Below, in pieces: positions 1,217 through 8,371 of a DNA stretch of 8,661 nucleotides. The translations under genes and the position numbers were made by a program. This DNA comes from an uncultured Atopobiaceae bacterium (lineage in GTDB: Bacteria > Actinomycetota > Coriobacteriia > Coriobacteriales > Atopobiaceae), in NCBI GenBank assembly GCA_944321005.1, contig CALUJT010000080.1, forward strand, positions 1-8,661. Direction: 5' to 3'. Position 1 is the first letter of the stretch, and each line of letters begins with the position of its first letter. The notes beneath the pieces are model-generated. The model worked only from the letters and a program-made list of their open reading frames with translations. It did not search any database and was not told the origin of the DNA.

Positions 1217-1290
1217 GGGCGCCCCCGTTCTTCTCGCCCGGCGATTTCTGCGCGCGGCGCAGTGAGCCGGAGAGAAGAACGGGGGCGCCC
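1217..1290. repeat. 19-bp perfect inverted repeat between convergent genes
   Basis: Arms 1217-1235 and 1272-1290 are perfect reverse complements (outer GGGCGCCCCC, inner GTTCTTCTC), with a 36-base spacer. The spacer has its own 6-bp hairpin (1248-1253 with 1257-1262), and CCGGC 1238-1242 can pair with GCCGG 1266-1270, so the whole element could fold into one long stem. It lies 38 bases after the stop of the 918 gene and 28 bases after the stop of yebC. It may terminate both transcripts, but neither side has a U-run, so a dispersed palindromic repeat is equally possible. Confidence 0.8.
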
Positions 1291-1318
1291 CTTCAGGTGC
1301 GTATGAGACGAGCGCTGC

Positions 1319-2116
1319 CTACTCCTCGTCGAGAGCGGCCACGATCTCGTCGGTCATGTCCATGGTGTGGTAGACGTTCTGGACGTCCTCCAGCTCGTCG
1401 AGGCGGTCGACGAGGCGCTGGACCTTCTTGGCGTCGGCCACGGAGACCTGCGTCGGGGTCGTGGGGACCATGGTGAGCTCGGAGCCCTTGACCTCGATGC
1501 CCTGCTCCTCGAGGCCCTTCTGGACCTCCTGCATCTTGTCGTAGGCGGTCCAGACGATCCACTCCTCGCCGGCGTCCTCGTAGTCCTCGCCGCCCGCCTC
1601 GGCCACGGCGAGCATGAACTCGTCCTCGTCGACGGCGTTCTCCTTGTCGGCGATCTTCTTGTCCTCGGACTTGATGATCTTCTCGACGGCGATGGATCCC
1701 TTGCGCTCGAACTGGAACGCGACGGAGCCGGAGGTGCCGAGCGAGCCGCCGGAGTGGGAGAAGGCGGAGCGCACGTCGGCGGCGGTGCGGTTCTTGTTGT
1801 CCGTCAGGCAGTCCACGTAGACGGCCACGCCGGCGGGACCGTAGCCCTCGTAGGTGATCTCGGCGTAGTTGGCGGCGTCGGCGCCGGAGCCGAAGGCCTT
1901 GTCGATGGCAGCCTTGATCTTGGCGTTGGGCATGGAGACCATGCGGGCGCGGGCAACGGCAGCCGCGAGGGTGGCGTTGTTGTCCGGGTTGGGGTCGCCG
2001 CCGAGCTTGGCCGCAACGGTGATGTTGCGGGAGAGCTTGGAGAAGAGCGACGAGCGCTTGGCGTCGATGGCGGCCTTCTTGTGCTTGGTGGTTGCCCACT
2101 TAGAGTGTCCGGACAT
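1319..2116 (-). CDS. yebC: YebC/PmpR/TACO1 family protein, 265 aa
   Basis: A YebC-family protein. Members were long annotated as DNA-binding regulators; more recent work on YebC and mitochondrial TACO1 assigns them to the ribosome, easing translation through proline-rich stretches. The hallmark N-terminus SGHSKWATTKHKKAAIDAKR (2-21) is present, followed by DPNPDNNATL (41-50), MPNAKIKAAIDKA (62-74) and YEGYGPAGVAVYVDCLTDNKNRT (89-111, read in pieces). The ATG at 2116 is preferred because AAGGAG sits 6 bases upstream; an ATG 6 bases earlier overlaps that site. At 265 residues it is slightly longer than the usual 240-250, with extra charged sequence around 150-182 (EDKKIADKEN, then DEDEF). Unlike in many bacteria, no ruvC/ruvA/ruvB genes are adjacent on either side within the window; it looks monocistronic. 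Confidence 0.95.
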   Translation of the reverse strand: MSGHSKWATTKHKKAAIDAKRSSLFSKLSRNITVAAKLGGDPNPDNNATLAAAVARARMVSMPNAKIKAAIDKAFGSGADAANYAEITYEGYGPAGVAVYVDCLTDNKNRTAADVRSAFSHSGGSLGTSGSVAFQFERKGSIAVEKIIKSEDKKIADKENAVDEDEFMLAVAEAGGEDYEDAGEEWIVWTAYDKMQEVQKGLEEQGIEVKGSELTMVPTTPTQVSVADAKKVQRLVDRLDELEDVQNVYHTMDMTDEIVAALDEE

Positions 2117-2178
2117 GTACATCTCCTTCTTGCCCCGCTCGCGGCGCTCTGCCAGCCGCTCGGGAGCCCTCGACTCAC

Positions 2179-2193
2179 GGCATGAAACATGCC
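2179..2193. repeat. Small palindrome at the predicted yebC transcription start
   Basis: GGCATG and CATGCC are separated by AAA (6-bp arms), placed where transcription from the 2195-2223 promoter should begin. It could be an operator or a short 5' hairpin in the yebC leader. Short palindromes arise by chance in GC-rich DNA, so confidence in a function is low. Confidence 0.35.
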
Positions 2194-2194
2194 T

Positions 2195-2223
2195 ACGATA
2201 GCCAAGTGCCGTCACGTTGTAAA
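2195..2223 (-). promoter_or_regulatory. Predicted sigma70-type promoter of yebC
   Basis: On the minus strand, TTTACA (2218-2223, 5 of 6 to TTGACA) and TATCGT (2195-2200, 4 of 6 to TATAAT) are separated by exactly 17 bases. The predicted start near 2188 gives a leader of about 72 nt before the ATG at 2116. This is the best two-box promoter in the window. It lies between yebC and the 233-bp inverted-repeat element, so yebC need not depend on anything inside that element. Confidence 0.6.
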
Positions 2224-2282
2224 GGGCCGCCTCCGATTCCGGCAGTCGAGGCCCCAGGACGCCTCCGAGGACGAGTCATACT

Positions 2283-2515
2283 TGCGAGGTTTGGCCGCTC
2301 GTGCGATGCCGGCGCGGGCCGTCGCGGGGTTTCGCGCTTCGTGCGATGCGAGAATCGGGCGAGACGGGCCGTCACGCCACGGTCTTGCGGCGTTTTCCAA
2401 GATATCGATATCAAGTATCAAACCAAAATTCGTCGGAGGCCGAAAAACGCATCGCACGAAGCGCGAAACCCCGCGACGGCCCGCGCCGGCATCGCACGAG
2501 CGGCCAAACCTCGCA
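2283..2515. repeat. 233-bp element with perfect 68-bp inverted repeats
   Basis: Arms 2283-2350 and 2448-2515 are perfect reverse complements over 68 bases. They enclose a 97-bp core (2351-2447). Each arm holds two imperfect direct copies, 40 bases apart, of a unit running from GCGRGGTTT to TCGTGCGATGC (21 of 27 bases identical), so the element has four copies of TCGTGCGATGC in all, two per strand. The core has an AT-rich patch (about 2392-2432) with the 12-bp palindrome GATATCGATATC at 2401-2412, unlike the surrounding GC-rich DNA. No convincing open reading frame or transposase is inside, and no target-site duplication is visible at the edges. It fills the gap between the S component gene (stop 2541) and the yebC promoter. 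It may be a MITE-like element, an invertible segment, or a very large hairpin ending S component transcription. Confidence 0.9.
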
Positions 2516-2540
2516 CCCAGCACCTCGTCAGCCGCGACGC

Positions 2541-3251
2541 TCACAGGTCGTACTTGGCCACCACGCGCCGGACGGCCCTCCCCCACGGCAGCCAGATCGC
2601 AGCCAGGAACGCGACCGTCGCCACGCCGTGCGTCACGTCGAGCGGCAGGCTCGCCGCACAGGCTGCGAGCGCCGCCGGCCAGGTGAGGGGCTGCACGTAG
2701 CCGAGCACGTGATAGCCGTTGAGAATAAGCCCGTAGACGATGCCGGAGAGAAAGCCCCAGCCGTAGAGAGCGGGAGCGTGATTCAGCAGGCCCTTCTCAC
2801 CAAGCACGCCGCCGACGTAGCCGACGAGCCCCCAGGCATACATCTGCCAGGGCGTCCAGGGGCCCTGCCCGAAGAAGACATTAGAGAGGAGCGCCGCGAG
2901 CGCGCCCACCACGAAGCCGCTCCTGCGCCCGAGCGCCGCGCCCGCCACGATGGCAATGGCAGACACCGGCTTGACGTCGGGCAGCGGCGCAAAGAGCACG
3001 CGGCCGGCAGCCGCCAGGGCGGCGAGGACGGCGGTGGGCATGAGCTGGCGCAGCGCCGGCCGCGAGGCCTCGAACCCCACAAGGAGCAGCGCCACGCAGA
3101 GCAGCGCCACCACGAGCGAAACGCCCGCCGTGGCGCGCACCCCCGCCAGCGCGAGGCACGCCATCGCCGCCGGAACCGCCGCGAGCGCAAGCGGCTCGGC
3201 GGCCGTCAAAACCCGGGCGAGCGGCCGGCGTGTTTGCTTCTCCCCAATCAT
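2541..3251 (-). CDS. ECF transporter S component (substrate-binding membrane subunit), 236 aa
   Basis: A hydrophobic protein with about six membrane segments (roughly 18-37, 43-60, 70-90, 95-124, 135-152 and 163-220 in part), the size and layout of an energy-coupling-factor S component. S components bind a vitamin and are energised by EcfT plus two ATPases. The stretches PLPDVKPVSAIAIVAG (89-104), GRRSGFVVGALAALLSNVFF (108-127) and GQGPWTPWQMYAWGLVG (128-144) resemble S components that accompany DUF4430 lipoproteins and are predicted to import cobalamin-like compounds; the substrate is inferred. The ATG at 3251 gives the expected short cytoplasmic N-terminus, but no Shine-Dalgarno is visible (GGTACCC precedes it), so initiation may be leaderless or weak. 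The frame stays open upstream only as the antisense of the acidic gene. Its start faces that gene's start, 45 bases away. The matching A and T subunits are at 3817-6200. Confidence 0.85.
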   Translation of the reverse strand: MIGEKQTRRPLARVLTAAEPLALAAVPAAMACLALAGVRATAGVSLVVALLCVALLLVGFEASRPALRQLMPTAVLAALAAAGRVLFAPLPDVKPVSAIAIVAGAALGRRSGFVVGALAALLSNVFFGQGPWTPWQMYAWGLVGYVGGVLGEKGLLNHAPALYGWGFLSGIVYGLILNGYHVLGYVQPLTWPAALAACAASLPLDVTHGVATVAFLAAIWLPWGRAVRRVVAKYDL

Positions 3252-3296
3252 GGGTACCAGTTTGCCATACCGCCGGCGATGCGCGAGGAGGACACC

Positions 3297-3734
3297 ATGC
3301 TGTACATCGGCAACTTCAGCTACAACGACGACTCGGACAGCAAGGACAACTACTGCCTCATGCCCTGCATCGTCGAGGCGGAGGACGCGGACGAGGCGAT
3401 GCAGAAGTTCGCCGACCACTTCCAGCAGATTCGCAAGAGCTCCGACCTCCTGGACGGCGCCCACGAGATCTTCCTCGACTCCCTGTGCGAGCTCGAGAGC
3501 GTCCCCGAGGAGCCGGTCATCTGCCAGTGGCAGAAGATCGTGCCGGCTATGGACGGACTCTGCAGCATCACGAGCGCGCTTCCCGTCGTGGACGAGGACA
3601 GCGACTTCGCCAACGCCTACGCCTGGGGCGACGAGGAGGACGAGCACGACCACGCCGAGGACATCGACTTCGAGGAGCTCGACGACCTCGATGACGACGA
3701 CCTCGTGTCCCAGGAGCCGTTCCTGCTGTTCTAA
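3297..3734 (+). CDS. Acidic hypothetical protein, 145 aa
   Basis: I do not recognise the family. The ATG at 3297 follows GAGGAGG with ideal spacing; the stop is TAA 3732-3734. Residues 1-100 look like a compact mixed domain: MLYIGNFSYN, then CLMPCIVEAEDADEAMQKFADHF, a pattern typical of small proteins whose N-terminal strand is followed by a helix, and ICQWQKIVP (75-83). Residues 99-138 form a strongly acidic, disordered-looking tail (GDEEDEHDHAEDIDFEELDD among them), ending in hydrophobic PFLLF. There are four cysteines (20, 24, 64, 76), the first two as CLMPC. There is no signal peptide or membrane helix. It stands alone on the plus strand between the S component gene and the rest of the ECF operon, and its promoter would lie inside the S gene's 5' end. 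A role in the transporter is not implied. Confidence 0.8.
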   Translation: MLYIGNFSYNDDSDSKDNYCLMPCIVEAEDADEAMQKFADHFQQIRKSSDLLDGAHEIFLDSLCELESVPEEPVICQWQKIVPAMDGLCSITSALPVVDEDSDFANAYAWGDEEDEHDHAEDIDFEELDDLDDDDLVSQEPFLLF

Positions 3735-3742
3735 CGGAGAGC

Positions 3743-3821
3743 GGTGACCCAAGGGGGGACAGGACCAAATTGGGACACAGTCCGCGTGTCCCAATTTGGT
3801 CCTGTCCCCCCTTGGGTCACC
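3743..3821. repeat. 36-bp perfect palindrome with 7-base loop, spanning the ecfA stop codon
   Basis: Arms 3743-3778 and 3786-3821 are perfect reverse complements (36 of 36), with loop AGTCCGC. The inner arm reads CAAATTGGGACAC and the outer arm GGTGACCCAAGGGGGGACAG. It begins 8 bases after the acidic gene's stop and includes the TGA stop (3817-3819) of the ATPase gene, so both convergent transcripts run into it. It is stable enough to act as a two-way terminator, although there is no U-run. Its CAAATTGGG core is shared with the palindrome at 6875-6905, which points to a dispersed repeat family. Confidence 0.9.
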
Positions 3822-5238
3822 AGAGCCACGAGTTGGCGAAGAACTCGTCGGTGGGCTCCGTCACCGTGACGCCGCCGTCGAACATGAGCGAGACGCTGTC
3901 AGCCACCGCACGGACGAACCCCGTGTCATGCGTGGCAACAAGGATCGTCGTCCCCTCGTCGCGCGTGGAGATCAGGCGCCGGGCCACCCGCTCGCGCGCC
4001 GCACGGTCGAGCCCCTTGGTAGGCTCGTCCAGAAGGAGCAGCCGCGGGCGCACGAGCAGCAGCTTCTCCAGCGCGAGCAGCTGCTGCTGGCCTCCCGAGA
4101 GGTCATAGGGGTGACGCTCCGCGGCGCCCGCGAGACCCAGCCGTCCCAGGGCGGCGCCCGCCTCCGCGCGCCCGTAGCCCCCGGCGCGCGACCACTCCAT
4201 GAGCTCGTCAATTACGGTCTCCCGGGAGAGGAGGGCCTTGGGCGACTGCGGCAGGAGCGCCTGGCTCGCCGCGGCGGCGTTGCGCACGCGACCGCGAGCC
4301 GGGCGCAGCATGCCGGCGAGCACGGTGAGCAGCGTGGACTTGCCGCAGCCGTTGGACCCCACGATCGCCCGGACCTCTCCCTCCCCCGCCGCAAGGTCGA
4401 GCTCCCGCAGAACCCAGCGGCCGTCCCTGCCATAGCGGTACCAGACGTCATCCGCGGCGATCGCCGCATGAGAGCGTGAGTTTCTGGCACTTTCCGCCCC
4501 GAATCGGGGGTCAAAAGTGCCAGAAACGCACGCTATGTCATGAGACCAGGACGCCAGCTCGGCCAGCGGGACCCCGCGCGCCGCACCGCCCTCGAGCGCA
4601 AGCGCGCACGTGGCGTAGTCGAGCATGGGGGCGGGCGTGTGCGTGGCCACCACCACGGTGATGCCGAGCTCTCGGTTTGCCCGGAAGAGCAGCGCGAGGA
4701 AGTTCTTCTCGGCCAGGGGGTCGAGCATGCTCGTGGGCTCGTCCAGCAGAAGGACGCGCGGACGCATCACGAGCGCGGAGGCGAGCGCCAGCACCTGCCG
4801 CTGGCCGCCGGAGAGCTCCGCCGTGCGCATGCGGAACCACGGCTCTATTCCCAGGAAGTTGCAGCACTCCGCCACGCGGCGGCGCATCTCCCGCTCCGGA
4901 ACGCCGAGGTTCTCGAGCCCAAAGGCCATCTCGTGCCAGACCGTGTCGCAGACCATCTGCGCGTCGGGGTTCTGGAAGACGTAGCCCACGGCGCGCGCGG
5001 AGGCGAGCGGGTCGAGCGTGCGGACGGACTCCCCAAGGGCGCGGACGTCGCCGACGAGATCGCCGACGGGGGATATCTCGGGCTTTGCCAGGCGCAGGAG
5101 CGTGGACTTGCCCGACCCCGTGGCACCCACGAGCAGGGCGAAGGCTCCCTCGGGGACCTCGAGGGACGCGCCGAGAAGGACGGGCGAGGACGCGCCGGCA
5201 TACGTGAAGGACACGCGGTCGAACTCGAGCGCGCTCAT
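3817..5238 (-). CDS. ECF transporter ATPase, fused double-domain EcfA (A-A'), 473 aa
   Basis: Two complete ABC ATPase domains in one chain, powering an ECF vitamin importer at the cytoplasmic membrane face. Domain 1 (about 1-225): Walker A GATGSGKST (38-46), Q-loop VFQNPDAQ (87-94), signature LSGGQRQ (142-148), Walker B VLLLDEPTS (162-170), switch His200. Domain 2 (about 258-473): Walker A GSNGCGKST (294-302), Q-loop LLPQSPK (328-334), signature LSGGQQQ (380-386), Walker B LLLLDEPT (400-407), switch His437. Both sites look catalytically intact. In many bacteria EcfA1 and EcfA2 are separate genes; here they are fused. The linker (235-256) is encoded by a palindromic element. The ATG at 5238 overlaps the upstream ecfT stop as ATGA, so the two are translationally coupled. 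The stop codon lies in the palindrome at 3743-3821. Confidence 0.95.
   Translation of the reverse strand: MSALEFDRVSFTYAGASSPVLLGASLEVPEGAFALLVGATGSGKSTLLRLAKPEISPVGDLVGDVRALGESVRTLDPLASARAVGYVFQNPDAQMVCDTVWHEMAFGLENLGVPEREMRRRVAECCNFLGIEPWFRMRTAELSGGQRQVLALASALVMRPRVLLLDEPTSMLDPLAEKNFLALLFRANRELGITVVVATHTPAPMLDYATCALALEGGAARGVPLAELASWSHDIACVSGTFDPRFGAESARNSRSHAAIAADDVWYRYGRDGRWVLRELDLAAGEGEVRAIVGSNGCGKSTLLTVLAGMLRPARGRVRNAAAASQALLPQSPKALLSRETVIDELMEWSRAGGYGRAEAGAALGRLGLAGAAERHPYDLSGGQQQLLALEKLLLVRPRLLLLDEPTKGLDRAARERVARRLISTRDEGTTILVATHDTGFVRAVADSVSLMFDGGVTVTEPTDEFFANSWLW
4473..4534. repeat. In-frame palindromic element inside ecfA
   Basis: Arms 4473-4493 and 4514-4534 are inverted over 21 bases with one mismatch (arm core TTTCTGGCACTTT). 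The 20-base loop holds a second palindrome, CCCCGA-A-TCGGGG (4498-4510). It lies in the DNA for the linker between the two ATPase domains and codes for residues 235-256 in frame, without stops. The sequence resembles an intergenic repeat rather than a coding constraint, so I read it as an insertion tolerated in a flexible linker. Confidence 0.85.
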
Positions 5239-6200
5239 GGCCGCCCCCCGTTCCGTTGACAGTCTGCCCGCGGTTGACAGATTCCCCGGGTCAAACTGTC
5301 AACCCCAACAGGTTGACAGTTTGACCCGGGGAATCTGTCAACCGCGGGGAATCTGTCAACCACCGACGCAAGGCCGGGCAGCGCAACGAGGACGGTCCAC
5401 GGGAGGTAGGCCCACCAAGGGCCGATGCCGGACATCGTGGGATAGAACCGCCAGCTCGCACAGGTCGTCCATGCGCACGCGGCACAGAGCGCGAGCAGGC
5501 CAGCGATCCCCGCCAGTGCCGCCGCGTCCCGACCGCGGAAGCGCTCGAGCCGGTAGCAGGTGCGAGACATGCCGGACTCCCAGCCCCGGGCGCGCATGGC
5601 GTCCGCGCGCTCGACGGAGTCCTCGAGGGACCAGGAGAGCAGCATCGTGGAGGTGCGGACGAGCTGGTCGCGCAGCCCCCCGCGCTCCCCCGCCGCCGTG
5701 CACGCCCCGAGCGTCGCGCGAACGGTCCGCGCCCGCCCGAGCATCTGCGGCACGAGCTGCGACGCCATGGAAACCACCACAGGGAGCGACCGCGCGCGCC
5801 CGGGCGAGAGCGCGAGGAGGCGGTCCTGCGTGAGGACGGTCGCGGCGCCCTCGAACCACAGGACCACGGCCACCATGAGCGCGCCCATCGTCGCGCCGCA
5901 CGCGAGGCTCTCCGCGTAGACGCTGCGAGGGCCCACCTTGAGAAGCAGCGTGGAGCCAGAGGCCGAGAAGAACGGGTTGGCCAGGCACACGAGCGCGAGC
6001 AGCGGAAGTTGCCAGGCAAGCCCGCGCGCCGTCGCGCGCACGCCGCGCACGAGCAGCGAGAACGAGAGCGCGCCCACGAGCGAGAGAACAACGTGGACGG
6101 GCTGAACCGCGAGCATCGAGAGCAGGGTCGTCCCCGCGAGGAGCGTCGCGGGGACGACCGCGTGCAAGGAGCCGAAGGGTATGGGACGCCCGGGCGCCAC
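5235..6200 (-). CDS. ecfT: ECF transporter transmembrane protein EcfT (CbiQ family), 321 aa
   Basis: The transmembrane coupling subunit that links the S component to the ATPases. Membrane segments lie at about 17-49, 63-78, 97-117, 142-155 (weaker), 228-246 and 262-281. The coupling helices carry the family's two Ala-Arg-X motifs: GRARSLP (134-140) and AMRARGWES (201-209). The start is a GTG at 6198-6200, with GAGGAGG 10 bases upstream; 23 bases separate it from the DUF4430 stop. The stop overlaps the ecfA start (ATGA). EcfT proteins usually have about 250-280 residues; the excess here is the tail, residues 281-316, encoded entirely by a cluster of inverted GTTGACAG repeats (see 5255-5360). 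The tail repeats VDRFP twice and CQP twice. Only the last few residues before the overlap look native. Confidence 0.9.
   Translation of the reverse strand: MAPGRPIPFGSLHAVVPATLLAGTTLLSMLAVQPVHVVLSLVGALSFSLLVRGVRATARGLAWQLPLLALVCLANPFFSASGSTLLLKVGPRSVYAESLACGATMGALMVAVVLWFEGAATVLTQDRLLALSPGRARSLPVVVSMASQLVPQMLGRARTVRATLGACTAAGERGGLRDQLVRTSTMLLSWSLEDSVERADAMRARGWESGMSRTCYRLERFRGRDAAALAGIAGLLALCAACAWTTCASWRFYPTMSGIGPWWAYLPWTVLVALPGLASVVDRFPAVDRFPGSNCQPVGVDSLTRGICQPRADCQRNGGRP
5255..5360. repeat. Palindromic repeat cluster forming the EcfT C-terminal tail
   Basis: Arms 5267-5304 and 5311-5348 are perfect 38-base reverse complements, with loop CCAACA. Further partial copies extend the cluster on both sides. 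The octamer GTTGACAG or its complement occurs six times (5255, 5273, 5296, 5312, 5335, 5353). The arms also contain ATTCCCCGGGTCAAA. The cluster sits in the last 40 codons of ecfT, in frame and without a stop, and leaves the downstream ATGA overlap with ecfA intact. Confidence 0.9.
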
Positions 6201-6223
6201 GTTCTTCTCGCCTCCTCCCCGGG

Positions 6224-6691
6224 CTACTCGGTGAACTCGGTCACGTAGGTCCAGGTGATGGCGTCGCCGTCAGCGACCTCGAGCTGGGAGCAGCCGACCT
6301 CGGCCATCTTTCCGTTGACCTCGAACATCCAGCCGCTCATGTCGCCGAAGTCGCCGCCGGCGAGGCCGTTGATGCCCGCCACGTACATGCCGTAGTCGGA
6401 GTCGCTCGCGTTGACGTCGGCGCCGGTCGCGACCAGCGCGTCGTAGACCGTGGAGCCCTCCGGGACGTCGACGTCCACGGTGGTGGACTCGCCCTCGCCC
6501 GCCGTGGCGTCGATGGTCACGCTCGCGGAGACAGTGGCCTGCTGCTCCTGGCCGGCGTCGGCCGACGCGTCACCGGATCCCGTCGCCGGCGTGCCGCCGC
6601 AGGCCGCGACGGTCAGCGCGAGCGCGAAGGCCGCCGCGCCGGCGGCGAGCCTCGTGAGAAGGCTCTTCTCGATAGGGTTGCGCTTGGTCAT
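6224..6691 (-). CDS. DUF4430 (transcobalamin-like) lipoprotein, 155 aa
   Basis: A predicted surface lipoprotein. The N-terminus MTKRNPIEKS leads into a hydrophobic stretch (14-30) with lipobox TVAAC, lipidated Cys31, then a Gly/Ala/Asp-rich linker (32-52). The rest is a DUF4430 domain: VPEGSTVYDALVATG (76-90), YGMYVAGINGLAGGDFGDMSGWMFEVNG (99-126, read in pieces) and DAITWTYV near the end. DUF4430 corresponds to the C-terminal domain of transcobalamin and intrinsic factor, so a substrate-capturing role for the adjacent ECF importer, possibly for cobamides, is plausible; the ligand is not shown by sequence. The ATG at 6691 is preferred over an upstream in-frame ATG (6796) because it gives a proper signal peptide and follows GCGAGG. 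It heads the DUF4430-ecfT-ecfA operon. Confidence 0.9.
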   Translation of the reverse strand: MTKRNPIEKSLLTRLAAGAAAFALALTVAACGGTPATGSGDASADAGQEQQATVSASVTIDATAGEGESTTVDVDVPEGSTVYDALVATGADVNASDSDYGMYVAGINGLAGGDFGDMSGWMFEVNGKMAEVGCSQLEVADGDAITWTYVTEFTE

Positions 6692-6863
6692 GTTGCCTCG
6701 CTCTCTCCCGGAATCCGGGCGTCGGGAGGGCAAGGCGGGGCGGACGACCACGCGGTCGCCGTCCCAAGACACAGCCGTGTGCTGATCCGGAGTCAAACCG
6801 GAGCCGTTTTCAACATGACGTGACAGCTGTTCGAGCCGTGCCCTCTATGCAAATGGAGACCCC
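6692..6863 (-). other. Leader region of the DUF4430-ecfT-ecfA operon
   Basis: If the promoter at 6864-6872 is used, the transcript has a leader of about 165 nt. It can form small hairpins: CCGGTTTGACTCCGG-type pairing near 6784-6800, ACAC/GTGT near 6769-6780, and the palindrome CCCGGA-A-TCCGGG at 6707-6719, just upstream of the ribosome binding site. A cobalamin riboswitch would be expected in this position, but I cannot find its conserved B12-box or core. No known riboswitch class was recognised. Confidence 0.3.
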
Positions 6864-7538
6864 AGTGTAGCAGTCTGCAAATTGGGGACTGTCCCCAATT
6901 TGCAGAAGCGCGGGACGCATGAGGTCGGCCAGGCGGCGGAAGCCCTCCTCGGTAAGGTGCAGCCCGTCGGCGTAGAGCTCGGCGCGCGTGCGACCGCTCT
7001 CGTCGAGAAACGCGTCGAAGACGTCCAGGAAGCTCACGCGGTCGTCGCGAATGAGCTCGCGCTCCTGGGGCAGGATCATGCGCAGAAGGTCATTGCTTCG
7101 GGCGCACGGCTTGGCGCGGTATCCGTCGACATCCTCGACGCACGGCAGGGGGCTCCACAGCAGCACGCGCGCCTCCGGCAGGTTGCCCAGGATGAGGTCG
7201 ACGAGGTCGCACACGTTGCGAGCCACGTCGCGCGGGCTCGCCATGACGGTGTTGCCCAGGTCGTTGGTGCCCACCATGAGCACCGCCAGGCGCGGGCTAC
7301 GCTTGATGACGGCCTCGTCCGCAAGCCAGAGAAGCTCCTCGGAGACCGCTCCCGCCACGCCGCAGTTCTGGGCGCCCGGCAGCTCCGGGAAGAGGCGCTC
7401 CACGGGGAAGAGCTGCGTCAGCGAGTCACCGTAGAAGACCACGCCGCCCGGCTCCGCCGACTCGGTGGCGCGCACGATGTCGAGCATTCGCTCCAGCTGC
7501 GGACGGCGCAGCTGGAAGAAGCGCGGGTTATATGCCAT
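6810..7538 (-). CDS. SGNH/GDSL-type hydrolase with extended C-terminus, 242 aa
   Basis: A serine esterase or acyl hydrolase of the SGNH superfamily. Block I is VVFYGDSLTQ (33-42, nucleophile Ser39), block II has Gly60 in NCGVAGA, block III is VGTNDLG (89-95, Asn92), and block V is DGLHLTEEGF (191-200, Asp191 and His194). No signal peptide, so probably cytosolic; the substrate is unknown. The domain should end near RPALLQ (208-213), as in relatives. Residues 212-222 are encoded by a 31-bp palindrome, and 223-242 are read from what looks like former intergenic DNA including a promoter. The start is uncertain: ATG 7538 has GGAGG 14-15 bases upstream (far), and an in-frame GTG at 7550 has it only 3 bases away. 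It is divergent from the GNAT gene, 146 bases apart. Confidence 0.88.
   Translation of the reverse strand: MAYNPRFFQLRRPQLERMLDIVRATESAEPGGVVFYGDSLTQLFPVERLFPELPGAQNCGVAGAVSEELLWLADEAVIKRSPRLAVLMVGTNDLGNTVMASPRDVARNVCDLVDLILGNLPEARVLLWSPLPCVEDVDGYRAKPCARSNDLLRMILPQERELIRDDRVSFLDVFDAFLDESGRTRAELYADGLHLTEEGFRRLADLMRPALLQIGDSPQFADCYTGVSICIEGTARTAVTSC
6864..6872 (-). promoter_or_regulatory. Putative extended -10 promoter for the DUF4430-ecfT-ecfA operon
   Basis: TGC plus TACACT on the minus strand is a textbook extended -10 element. The same nonamer occurs upstream of the SGNH gene at 7586-7594. It lies 172 bases upstream of the DUF4430 ATG and inside the SGNH reading-frame extension. No consensus -35 is seen; the expected -35 region falls in the palindrome at 6875-6905. 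Confidence 0.4.
6875..6905. repeat. 31-bp perfect palindrome at the end of the SGNH gene
   Basis: Fifteen-base arms 6875-6889 and 6891-6905 around a single T (CTGCAAATTGGGGAC and its complement). The core CAAATTGGG recurs in the palindrome at 3743-3821. It is in frame with the SGNH gene and directly upstream of the putative operon promoter, so it could also act as an operator. Confidence 0.9.
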
Positions 7539-8146: not shown

Positions 8147-8371
8147 CGGACCCACTTGGGAGAGGGAGTCGCAGGCGCAGGAACGGGGCTCGGGGGACTG
8201 CGCCGGGCCCACCTGTCCCAAAACGTCTGAACGAAAAAACACGTCCCCCTTTGCGCGTTCAGCCACCCGACAGCGATGCGCGGTTATCGTGTGCGCCGCA
8301 TGGAGGGGAGATGTGCGGGTACATCAGTGGCATTTGTCCCCATGTCCCCACGTCACGGAATCGAGGCCCGC
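8147..8371. other. 225-bp gap with hairpins, no gene recognised
   Basis: No convincing reading frame. Two stem-loops can be drawn: GGCGCAG 8174-8180 with CTGCGCC 8198-8204 (17-base loop), and CTGAACG 8228-8234 with CGTTCAG 8257-8263 (22-base loop with six A's). TGTCCCA (8214-8220) and a doubled GTCCCC (8337-8349) recall fragments of the palindromes elsewhere in the window. The promoter of the VWA gene must lie here, but no clear boxes were seen. A small RNA cannot be excluded. Confidence 0.35.

What the first reader, a model, noticed from the sequence alone, without database searches (positions are those of the whole stretch)
1217..6905. Six strong palindromic elements in 8.7 kb, three inside reading frames
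The elements at 1217, 2283, 3743, 4473, 5255 and 6875 have largely unlike sequences but similar architecture. All lie at gene ends, in linkers or between genes, none in a folded domain, and every in-frame one keeps its frame open. This may be an undescribed set of small palindromic elements compatible with coding DNA, concentrated around the SGNH-ECF block.
Basis: inference. Interest (0 to 1): 0.75.

Follow-up and report, generated by a model that had tools for sequence, protein, structure and literature searches.

The report
Palindromes paired with their own transposases
Four of seven palindromes in this stretch of bacterial DNA match the inverted repeats beside particular transposase genes in the same genome or its genus, so they are likely small mobile elements moved by those enzymes; in sampled DNA such palindromes rarely sit inside an open reading frame, which speaks against a design that fits them into genes.

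Summary
The six palindromes are real. In 605 kb of the same genome, inverted repeats of score 16 or more occur about 1.1 per 10 kb; Markov controls gave 0-1 per 233 kb. The window holds 6; none of 238 sampled windows holds more than 4.

They are not one new coding-compatible set. The four such genes in this genome each have a different flanking repeat. In the genus, 62 of 67 such genes have long inverted repeats around them (same-method test: 38 of 50 against 11 of 3000 random intervals). Repeat sequence correlates with transposase phylogeny, and copy number with presence of the cognate transposase (9 genomes with it 22-115 copies, 22 without 0-28).

The frame idea fails: 3 of 127 sampled palindromes sit in an open frame with coding on both sides. 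Only at 4473, an ATPase linker, does function demand the frame.

Of the rest, 1217 is a conserved hairpin beside yebC, 4473 a small repeat family, 2283 a very regular 233-bp element of unknown mechanism.

Transposition itself is inferred. Closest known: TIRtrons/TIRYTs (Di Nocera 2013), RAYT subclass 2.1.

The parts
1217..1290 (.). E1: conserved hairpin between yebC (minus) and a convergent small ORF
   Evidence: Inverted repeats of score 18 or more with differing stems in 8 of 38 relatives' loci, all 8 at the site where the window's flanks map; aligned in L040, L009, L010; only a 14-nt match in the flanks of 70 RAYT genes
2283..2515 (.). E2: four 26-bp units, two per arm 40 bp apart, around a middle of about 101 nt with a 16-bp core; dispersed family
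3743..3821 (.). E3: 36-nt perfect arms, 7-nt loop; RAYT R2 family; contains the stop codon of the ECF ATPase gene
   Evidence: 23 nt at 95.7% to the flank of RAYT R2; 74 nt at 88% to the flank of RAYT L234; four empty orthologous sites
4473..4534 (.). E4: stem-conserved, loop-variable element in the linker between the two ABC domains of the ECF ATPase
   Evidence: 12 pattern hits (7 elements) in own genome, 0 in 30 other genus genomes; a diverged relative in the orthologous linker of L046; no match in the flanks of 70 RAYT genes at E 0.05
5255..5361 (.). E5: inverted pair of TTGACAG...CTGTCAA units plus a half unit, at the 3' end of the ECF T-component gene; RAYT R4 family
   Evidence: 15 nt exact to the R4 flank; one pattern hits window 5274-5302 and 5313-5341 and both flanks of RAYT R4 (C161:4119-4147, C161:5033-5061); L040 holds a single unit at the same site
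6874..6906 (.). E6: TCTGCAAATTGGGGACTGTCCCCAATTTGCAGA at the 3' end of the SGNH hydrolase gene
   Evidence: 31 of 31 nt identical to the upstream flank of a RAYT in genome G008 (L244) and 27 nt at 96% to that of L246, which has the core on both sides; 28 copies of the core in own genome; covarying stems in L040 and L010
8211..8248 (-).
   Evidence: 38 nt at 94.7% and 92.1% to the two flanks of RAYT R3
3817..5238 (-). ECF transporter ATPase with two ABC domains
   Evidence: PF00005, two stretches; TIGR04520 best NCBIfam hit, below its cut-off
5235..6200 (-). Putative ECF T component (named by position; no Pfam or NCBIfam hit)
   Evidence: tblastn relative before the ATPase in 38 of 38 relatives' loci, some partial
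6810..7538 (-). SGNH/GDSL hydrolase; its reading frame runs through E6
   Evidence: PF13472
2541..3251 (-). ECF S component
   Evidence: PF07155 and PF12822

Best explanation
Four of the seven palindromes in the window (3743-3821, 5255-5361, 6874-6906 and 8211-8248) match the inverted repeats that flank Y1 (RAYT/TIRYT-type) transposase genes in this genome or its genus, and they are likely non-autonomous mobile elements that these enzymes move. Shown here: each of the four such transposase genes found in the genome carries its own flanking repeat family; repeat sequence correlates with transposase phylogeny across the genus; copy number correlates with presence of a cognate transposase; and orthologous sites occur empty, filled, or filled with a different palindrome. 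Inferred: the transposase (conserved HUH pair and tyrosine) recognises its palindrome as a single-stranded hairpin, cuts it out and joins it elsewhere, probably at the replication fork. Inferred: the two arms stay identical because one templates the other, which would explain symmetric substitutions in both arms and an inverted loop. Copies would persist where they do least harm: between convergent genes, at gene 3' ends, and in one variable protein linker. The other three palindromes are of other kinds: 1217 a conserved hairpin beside yebC, 4473 a small repeat family, 2283 a separate regular element.
For:: 4 PF01797 genes in the genome; each has copies of one repeat family on both sides, a different family each; R2, R3 and R4 families match window 3755-3777/3787-3809, 8211-8248 and 5289-5303; one search finds the R4 pattern in both R4 flanks and in 5274-5302/5313-5341; window 6874-6906 matches the flank of a RAYT in G008 over 31 of 31 nt; 62 of 67 RAYT genes with at least 300 bp held on both sides have inverted repeats of score 16 or more., one method for both sets: 38 of 50 RAYT genes (those of 73 loci that a motif search recognised) against 11 of 3000 random 780-bp intervals; 70 RAYT proteins keep the HUH histidines (97%, 99%) and the tyrosine of RYxHxNP (100%). 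Mantel rho 0.36 between protein and repeat distances, highest of 999 permutations 0.17, 63 genes; copies of the 6874 core are 22-115 in the 9 genomes with that RAYT clade (drawn by me from the tree) and 0-28 in the 22 without (Mann-Whitney p = 6e-6); with the stricter rule of the core in both flanks, 7 genomes, p = 1e-4; 8211 family 20-55 hits in 7 genomes with a cognate, 0-52 in 24 without (p = 8e-4); the 3743 site is empty in L016, L017, L027 and L043, filled in the window and L040 with inverted loop and a symmetric arm change; 17 of 51 own-genome palindromes match a RAYT flank, arm-shuffled palindromes 0 of 204; GGGGWSAS in 28 of 63 repeats (shuffled mean 0.8).
Against: No movement was observed and no enzyme was tested. 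34 of 51 sampled palindromes match no RAYT flank, so the RAYTs in hand explain a third; random intervals matched in 12 of 204 cases, presumably through neighbouring genes. R2 itself scores below the inverted-repeat threshold (12, 0): its upstream copy is imperfect and reaches into the reading frame. L244, the exact match of 6874, carries the repeat on one side only. Cognates can be missing where copies are many: 6874 family, 28 in this genome (85% complete) and 13 in G016 without one found; 5255 family, 62 pattern hits in G001 but not within 400 bp of its four fetched RAYT genes; 8211 family, 13-52 in five genomes without a found cognate. Density does not track RAYT number simply: G028, G006 and G029 (2, 3 and 5 RAYTs) show 0-1 palindromes of score 30 or more in 80-120 kb. 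The GTAG tag of classical REPs is not enriched.
Confidence: 0.82

Rival explanations
1. One reading: one undescribed set of palindromes adapted to stay in frame inside coding DNA.
For: Three of six lie in open frames in this window, and all 37 ATPase linkers compared are in frame.
Against: Sample of own and genus DNA: 3 of 127 in open frame against 2674 of 5000 random intervals; 4 of 10 in phase where both sides look coding. L040 has a stop inside the 6874 orthologue. The elements belong to different families.
Confidence: 0.04
2. They are primarily RNA hairpins (bidirectional terminators or mRNA 3' end stabilisers) kept by selection at gene ends, and their sequence variety is compensatory drift.
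For: Location between convergent genes and at 3' ends; stems covary between species at 1217 and 6874.
Against: Families match transposase flanks nearly letter for letter, the 6874 core varies from 0 to 115 copies per genome, and orthologous sites can be empty. Among the 13 Rfam matches with E up to 1 all are microRNA or plant SRP models below their gathering scores. It remains the best reading for 1217 alone.
Confidence: 0.12
3. The palindromes arise in place by template switching (quasi-palindrome mutation, a process recalled, not looked up) without any transposition; the RAYT link is a shared tolerance for repeats.
For: Perfect arms, a symmetric arm change and an inverted loop between the window and L040 at 3743.
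Against: In-place formation does not give the same 21-38 nt sequence at dozens of loci or its tie to one transposase clade.
Confidence: 0.07
4. Metagenome assembly or amplification artefact that makes false inverted duplications.
For: The window is one contig of a 294-contig assembly, 85% complete.
Against: Elements of the 3743, 5255, 6874 and 1217 kinds occur at orthologous sites in L040, an isolate assembly, and the 6874 core occurs 57 times in G008, a genome of 3 contigs.
Confidence: 0.02

Closest known systems
TIRtrons and TIRYTs (Di Nocera et al. 2013, PMC3733652; sections 15 and 16 and passages read)
   Same: RAYT-like Y1 transposase genes flanked by long terminal inverted repeats, many sharing GGGGWSAS, some also dispersed as moderately abundant families; several transposases with different repeats in one genome.
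   Different: Here one bacterial genus shows many transposase-repeat pairs, up to 115 core copies of one family per genome, and a copy-number link to the cognate transposase. A search of that text for Actinobacteria, Slackia and Eggerthella gave 0 occurrences.
TnpAREP/RAYT subclass 2.1, matched there to RAYT group 1 (Quentin et al. 2018, PMC6006769; section 20 and passages read)
   Same: HUH-Y core and a long C-terminal extension; the flanking-repeat motif GGGG[AT][CG]A[CG].
   Different: That paper reports no REP-like sequences near subclass 2.1 genes; here many flanking repeats are themselves palindromic and have dispersed relatives. Subclass membership was not proven here.
REPINs (Bertels and Rainey 2011, PMC3116915; passages read)
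   Same: Two inverted hairpin units forming a longer hairpin, one family per RAYT, non-autonomous.
   Different: No GTAG enrichment here; several elements are one long palindrome and not a REP doublet.
REP recognition and cutting by TnpAREP (PMC8266576; passages read)
   Same: Same enzyme superfamily; cleavage and strand transfer on single-stranded cognate hairpins shown in vitro.
   Different: The REPs tested in the passages seen carry the GTAG tag.
Rickettsia palindromic elements (RPE; seen only as cited in PMC3733652)
   Same: Palindromic repeats that can lie in reading frames.
   Different: In-frame copies are rare here (3 of 127).

Membership tests
TIRYT / TIRtron | Y1 HUH transposase gene of RAYT type | tested here: met
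   PF01797 above cut-off in all four own genes; HUH and tyrosine conserved in 70 proteins; NCBIfam REP_Tyr_transpos is the best hit but below its cut-off, 62-78 against 80 bits
TIRYT / TIRtron | Terminal inverted repeats around the transposase gene | tested here: met
   62 of 67 genes; 38 of 50 against 11 of 3000 controls; R2 of this genome falls below the threshold, though both its flanks carry the family
TIRYT / TIRtron | GGGGWSAS motif in the repeats | tested here: met
   28 of 63 repeats, shuffled mean 0.76; GGGACRG 48 of 63. Met by fewer than half; the original text says some TIRs share it
TIRYT / TIRtron | Dispersed copies of the repeat in the genome | tested here: met
RAYT subclass 2.1 / group 1 | C-terminal helix-turn-helix extension (Bac_DnaA_C, HTH_23 or HTH_28) | tested here: inconclusive
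   Only sub-threshold HTH-type hits (E 0.02-0.26) in 3 of 4 proteins; HTH_23 and HTH_28 in one; no profile of the subclass was available
REP (GTAG superfamily) | GTAG at the foot of the hairpin | tested here: not met
   GTAG anywhere in 11 of 63 repeats with 6-nt margins, shuffled mean 17
REPIN | Two REP units in inverted orientation forming one hairpin | tested here: inconclusive
   5255-5361 has this form and L040 has a single unit; 6874 is one palindromic unit; units lack the GTAG tag
Mobile element | Movement or excision | not testable with these tools
   Only empty and filled orthologous sites; no reads or assays
Rickettsia palindromic element type | Insertion in genes in frame | tested here: not met
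   3 of 127 palindromes, as a general habit; 4473 alone behaves so

The most novel reading that the evidence does not exclude
This genus carries a living radiation of private transposase-palindrome pairs: RAYTs of the kind reported without REP-like partners each drive their own palindrome family, and different families colonise the same landing sites in different species while each copy keeps its two arms identical by self-templated repair. The 2283-2515 element is a second, undescribed mobile or DNA-binding design: four 26-bp units at fixed 40-bp spacing around a 91- or 102-nt middle with a core at a fixed distance, amplified in one species.
Probability: 0.35. Interest if true: 0.72.

Novelty: new variant of a known kind. 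Interest (0 to 1): 0.52.

Why it matters
RAYT subclass 2.1 is described in PMC6006769 as the second largest subclass of its family (14.9% of strains), with flanking inverted repeats but no REP-like partner found. A genus where many RAYT genes each sit between, and scale with, their own palindromes gives natural enzyme-substrate pairs to test how a domesticated single-strand transposase recognises and spreads a hairpin. It also accounts for much of this cluster of dissimilar palindromes without a coding-compatible element.

Tried and rejected
Coding-compatible set: rejected on the frame test. A first version of that test called strands wrongly because it ranked frames on third-position and second-position GC alone; it was replaced, and its numbers are not used. 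The 5'-end against 3'-end split is not interpreted, because a gene that stops before the palindrome cannot be called by that method.

Known RNA: Rfam gave only microRNA and plant SRP models below gathering scores.

RAYT cognates for 1217, 2283 and 4473: none in the flanks of 70 RAYT genes beyond 14-nt matches for the first two.

Target duplications at 2283-type copies: none seen by eye in 13.

RAYT-free genomes as natural controls: direction as expected (score 30 or more: 1 in 326 kb of G002, G005 and G014 against 36 in 1325 kb of seven RAYT-bearing genomes, summed), but uneven between genomes and confounded by lower GC, so used only as weak support.

Literature: no description of such palindromes or RAYT partners in Coriobacteria-related taxa was seen. 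Searches (4 papers; 0 papers) were listed whole, (TIRYT) gave two papers; searches are capped lists (25 of 112, 15 of 247, 8 of 2618), so absence from print is not established. Bertels et al. 2017 is not held; what is said of its groups comes from PMC6006769.
Full report
WHAT WAS CHECKED. The window is a complete contig (C80, 8661 bases) of a 2.24-Mb, 294-contig genome estimated 85% complete. Orthologous ECF loci come from Olsenella, Thermophilibacter, Tractidigestivibacter and other Atopobiaceae, with a few Eggerthellaceae (L009-L046 used, five remote loci L047-L051 left out). The closest is L040, Olsenella sp. An285. An inverted-repeat scan finds the six elements at the stated places. In the sampled genome, score 18 or more occurs 33 times in 372 kb (20 largest contigs, up to 20 kb each) and 18 times in 233 kb (36 contigs, every seventh from C24 to C283, leaving out the window's contig and one RAYT contig); five Markov controls of the second set gave 0, 0, 0, 1 and 0. 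The four RAYT contigs, 27 kb, hold 9.

FAMILIES. The own-genome palindromes fall into recurring sequence families. Four Y1 transposase genes were found in the genome. Each has copies of one family on both sides: R1 TTGACAGGGGGACAGTCCCTTTGTCA, R2 GGGGACAGGACGAAATTGGGACAT and relatives, R3 GGGGACGTGTTTTTTCGTTCAGACTATTTGGGACAGGT, R4 TTGACAGTTTGCTCAGGTCAAACTGTCAA. R2's upstream copy is imperfect and reaches into the reading frame, so R2 fails the automated repeat threshold. The 6874-6906 element matches, over 31 of 31 nt, the upstream flank of a RAYT in another genus member (L244).

GENUS-WIDE TEST. In 31 genus genomes 28 have PF01797 genes, 76 matches in all. I held loci for 73; 3 of these (L116-L118) did not align to the four own proteins, leaving 70, of which 67 had at least 300 bp on both sides. 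Of these, 62 have an inverted repeat of score 16 or more between the flanks (seed 11). With one method for genes and controls (seed 12) the figures are 38 of 50 genes, 50 being those of the 73 that a motif search recognised, and 11 of 3000 random intervals. Repeat similarity correlates with the protein tree (Mantel rho 0.36 against at most 0.17 in 999 permutations). For the 6874 core, the 9 genomes with the corresponding RAYT clade, which I drew from the tree, have 22-115 copies and the 22 others 0-28, the exceptions being this genome (28) and G016 (13). With the stricter rule that both flanks contain the core, 7 genomes qualify and p is 1e-4. For the 8211 family the 7 genomes with a cognate have 20-55 pattern hits; of 24 without, 19 have fewer than 10 and five have 13-52. 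One of those five (G009) has an unfetched RAYT match at C33:115537-115806 with family copies at 115427, 115505 and 116276. For 5255, hits occur only in this genome (71) and G001 (62), although none of the four fetched RAYT genes of G001 carries it. The 3743 pattern occurs in 5 of 31 genomes, a few copies each.

ORTHOLOGOUS SITES. At the ATPase 3' end, four relatives (L016, L017, L027, L043) have no element and the two convergent genes abut; the window and L040 have the 79-bp palindrome. Other relatives carry different palindromes there: L009, L012, L037 and L046 within about 25 bp of the end of the ATPase match, L013 57 bp beyond it. Between the window and L040 the loop is inverted and a G/A difference appears in both arms. 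At 6874 the stems read TCTGCAAATT, TCTGTGAATT and TCTGTCAATT in window, L040 and L010 with matching right arms; L009 lacks it and its gene ends at its own stop. At 5255 L040 has one unit, L010 a different large palindrome, L009 a small hairpin. My reading, that one arm templates the other, is inference.

FRAMES. 3743 contains the ATPase stop codon. 5255 and 6874 sit at gene ends. 4473 lies in the linker between the two ABC domains, which varies from 23 to 84 residues in 37 sequences (36 relatives and the window), all in frame. L046 carries a relative of the 4473 element in that linker, and L013 and L037 an inverted repeat there that shares TGACAAAGGTG with RAYT repeats. In the sample of own and genus DNA, 3 of 127 palindromes are in an open frame with coding called on both sides.

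THE OTHER THREE. 1217-1290: a hairpin beside yebC with differing paired stems in 8 of 38 relatives' loci, terminator-like in position; function inferred. 4473: stem GTGAGTTTYTGGCASTTTT with variable loops, 12 pattern hits only in this genome among 31, though L046 shows a diverged member. 2283-2515: dispersed family, 21 pattern matches here, 1 in G001, none in 138 other family genomes. In 13 copies with all four units recognisable, the left units are exactly 40 bp apart, the right ones 40 (11) or 41 (2), and the middle is 101-103 (10) or 91-92 nt (3). A 16-bp core lies 44-45 nt from an inner unit in 15 of 15 loops (one from G001), with information content 14.8 against 10.3-10.5 bits in four shuffles that had fewer restarts. 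Eight of the 13 begin with TG and end with CA. A miniature element with paired transposase sites at each end, or a fixed protein-DNA assembly, would fit; neither was tested.

KNOWN WORK. Di Nocera et al. 2013 (sections 15 and 16 and passages read) describe TIRtrons with GGGGWSAS repeats and intragenic REPs. Quentin et al. 2018 (section 20 and passages) equate TIRYTs mostly with subclass 2.1 and report no REP-like sequences near those genes. Cleavage of cognate hairpins by other TnpAREP proteins is in PMC8266576 (passages); REPINs in PMC3116915 (passages). The present case meets four tested TIRtron features and fails the GTAG test of classical REPs.

VERDICT. Observation confirmed; interpretation largely replaced. 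The transposase link is strong for four of seven elements; mobility is inferred; two thirds of the sampled palindromes of this genome (34 of 51) remain without an assigned enzyme.

Noticed in passing
window 2283-2515 and L265, L269-L288, L322-L327: A dispersed element of about 210-235 bp with four 26-bp units at fixed 40-bp spacing, a 91- or 102-nt middle and a core at a fixed 44-45 nt offset; 21 pattern matches in this genome, 1 in G001, none in 138 other genomes of the family. Mechanism unknown.
   Followed up: partly
   Followed up: yes
L058:9905-9981, L070:4173-4241; L040 and L009 ATPase linkers: Another palindrome family (TTCATCGCGC...CGACCA) in this genome; similar letters fill the ATPase linker in L040 and L009.
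   Followed up: partly
L061:295-367, L062:14717-14793, L084:4153-4231; L082:8241-8324 and 9353-9436: Further palindrome families with 16-43 nt loops (GTAGTACGCACAGTTC; CGACCATACAACACCC); those scored 18 or more have no RAYT flank match.
   Followed up: no
window 1217-1290, 5962-5975, 6201-6210: The word GTTCTTCTCG/CGAGAAGAAC recurs here and in relatives, often near gene ends; possible terminator or binding-site component.
   Followed up: no
G001:C1:213357-213530: A partial RAYT match (164-residue frame) with a 3743-type palindrome at 214096-214153, possibly a decaying transposase beside its repeat.
   Followed up: no
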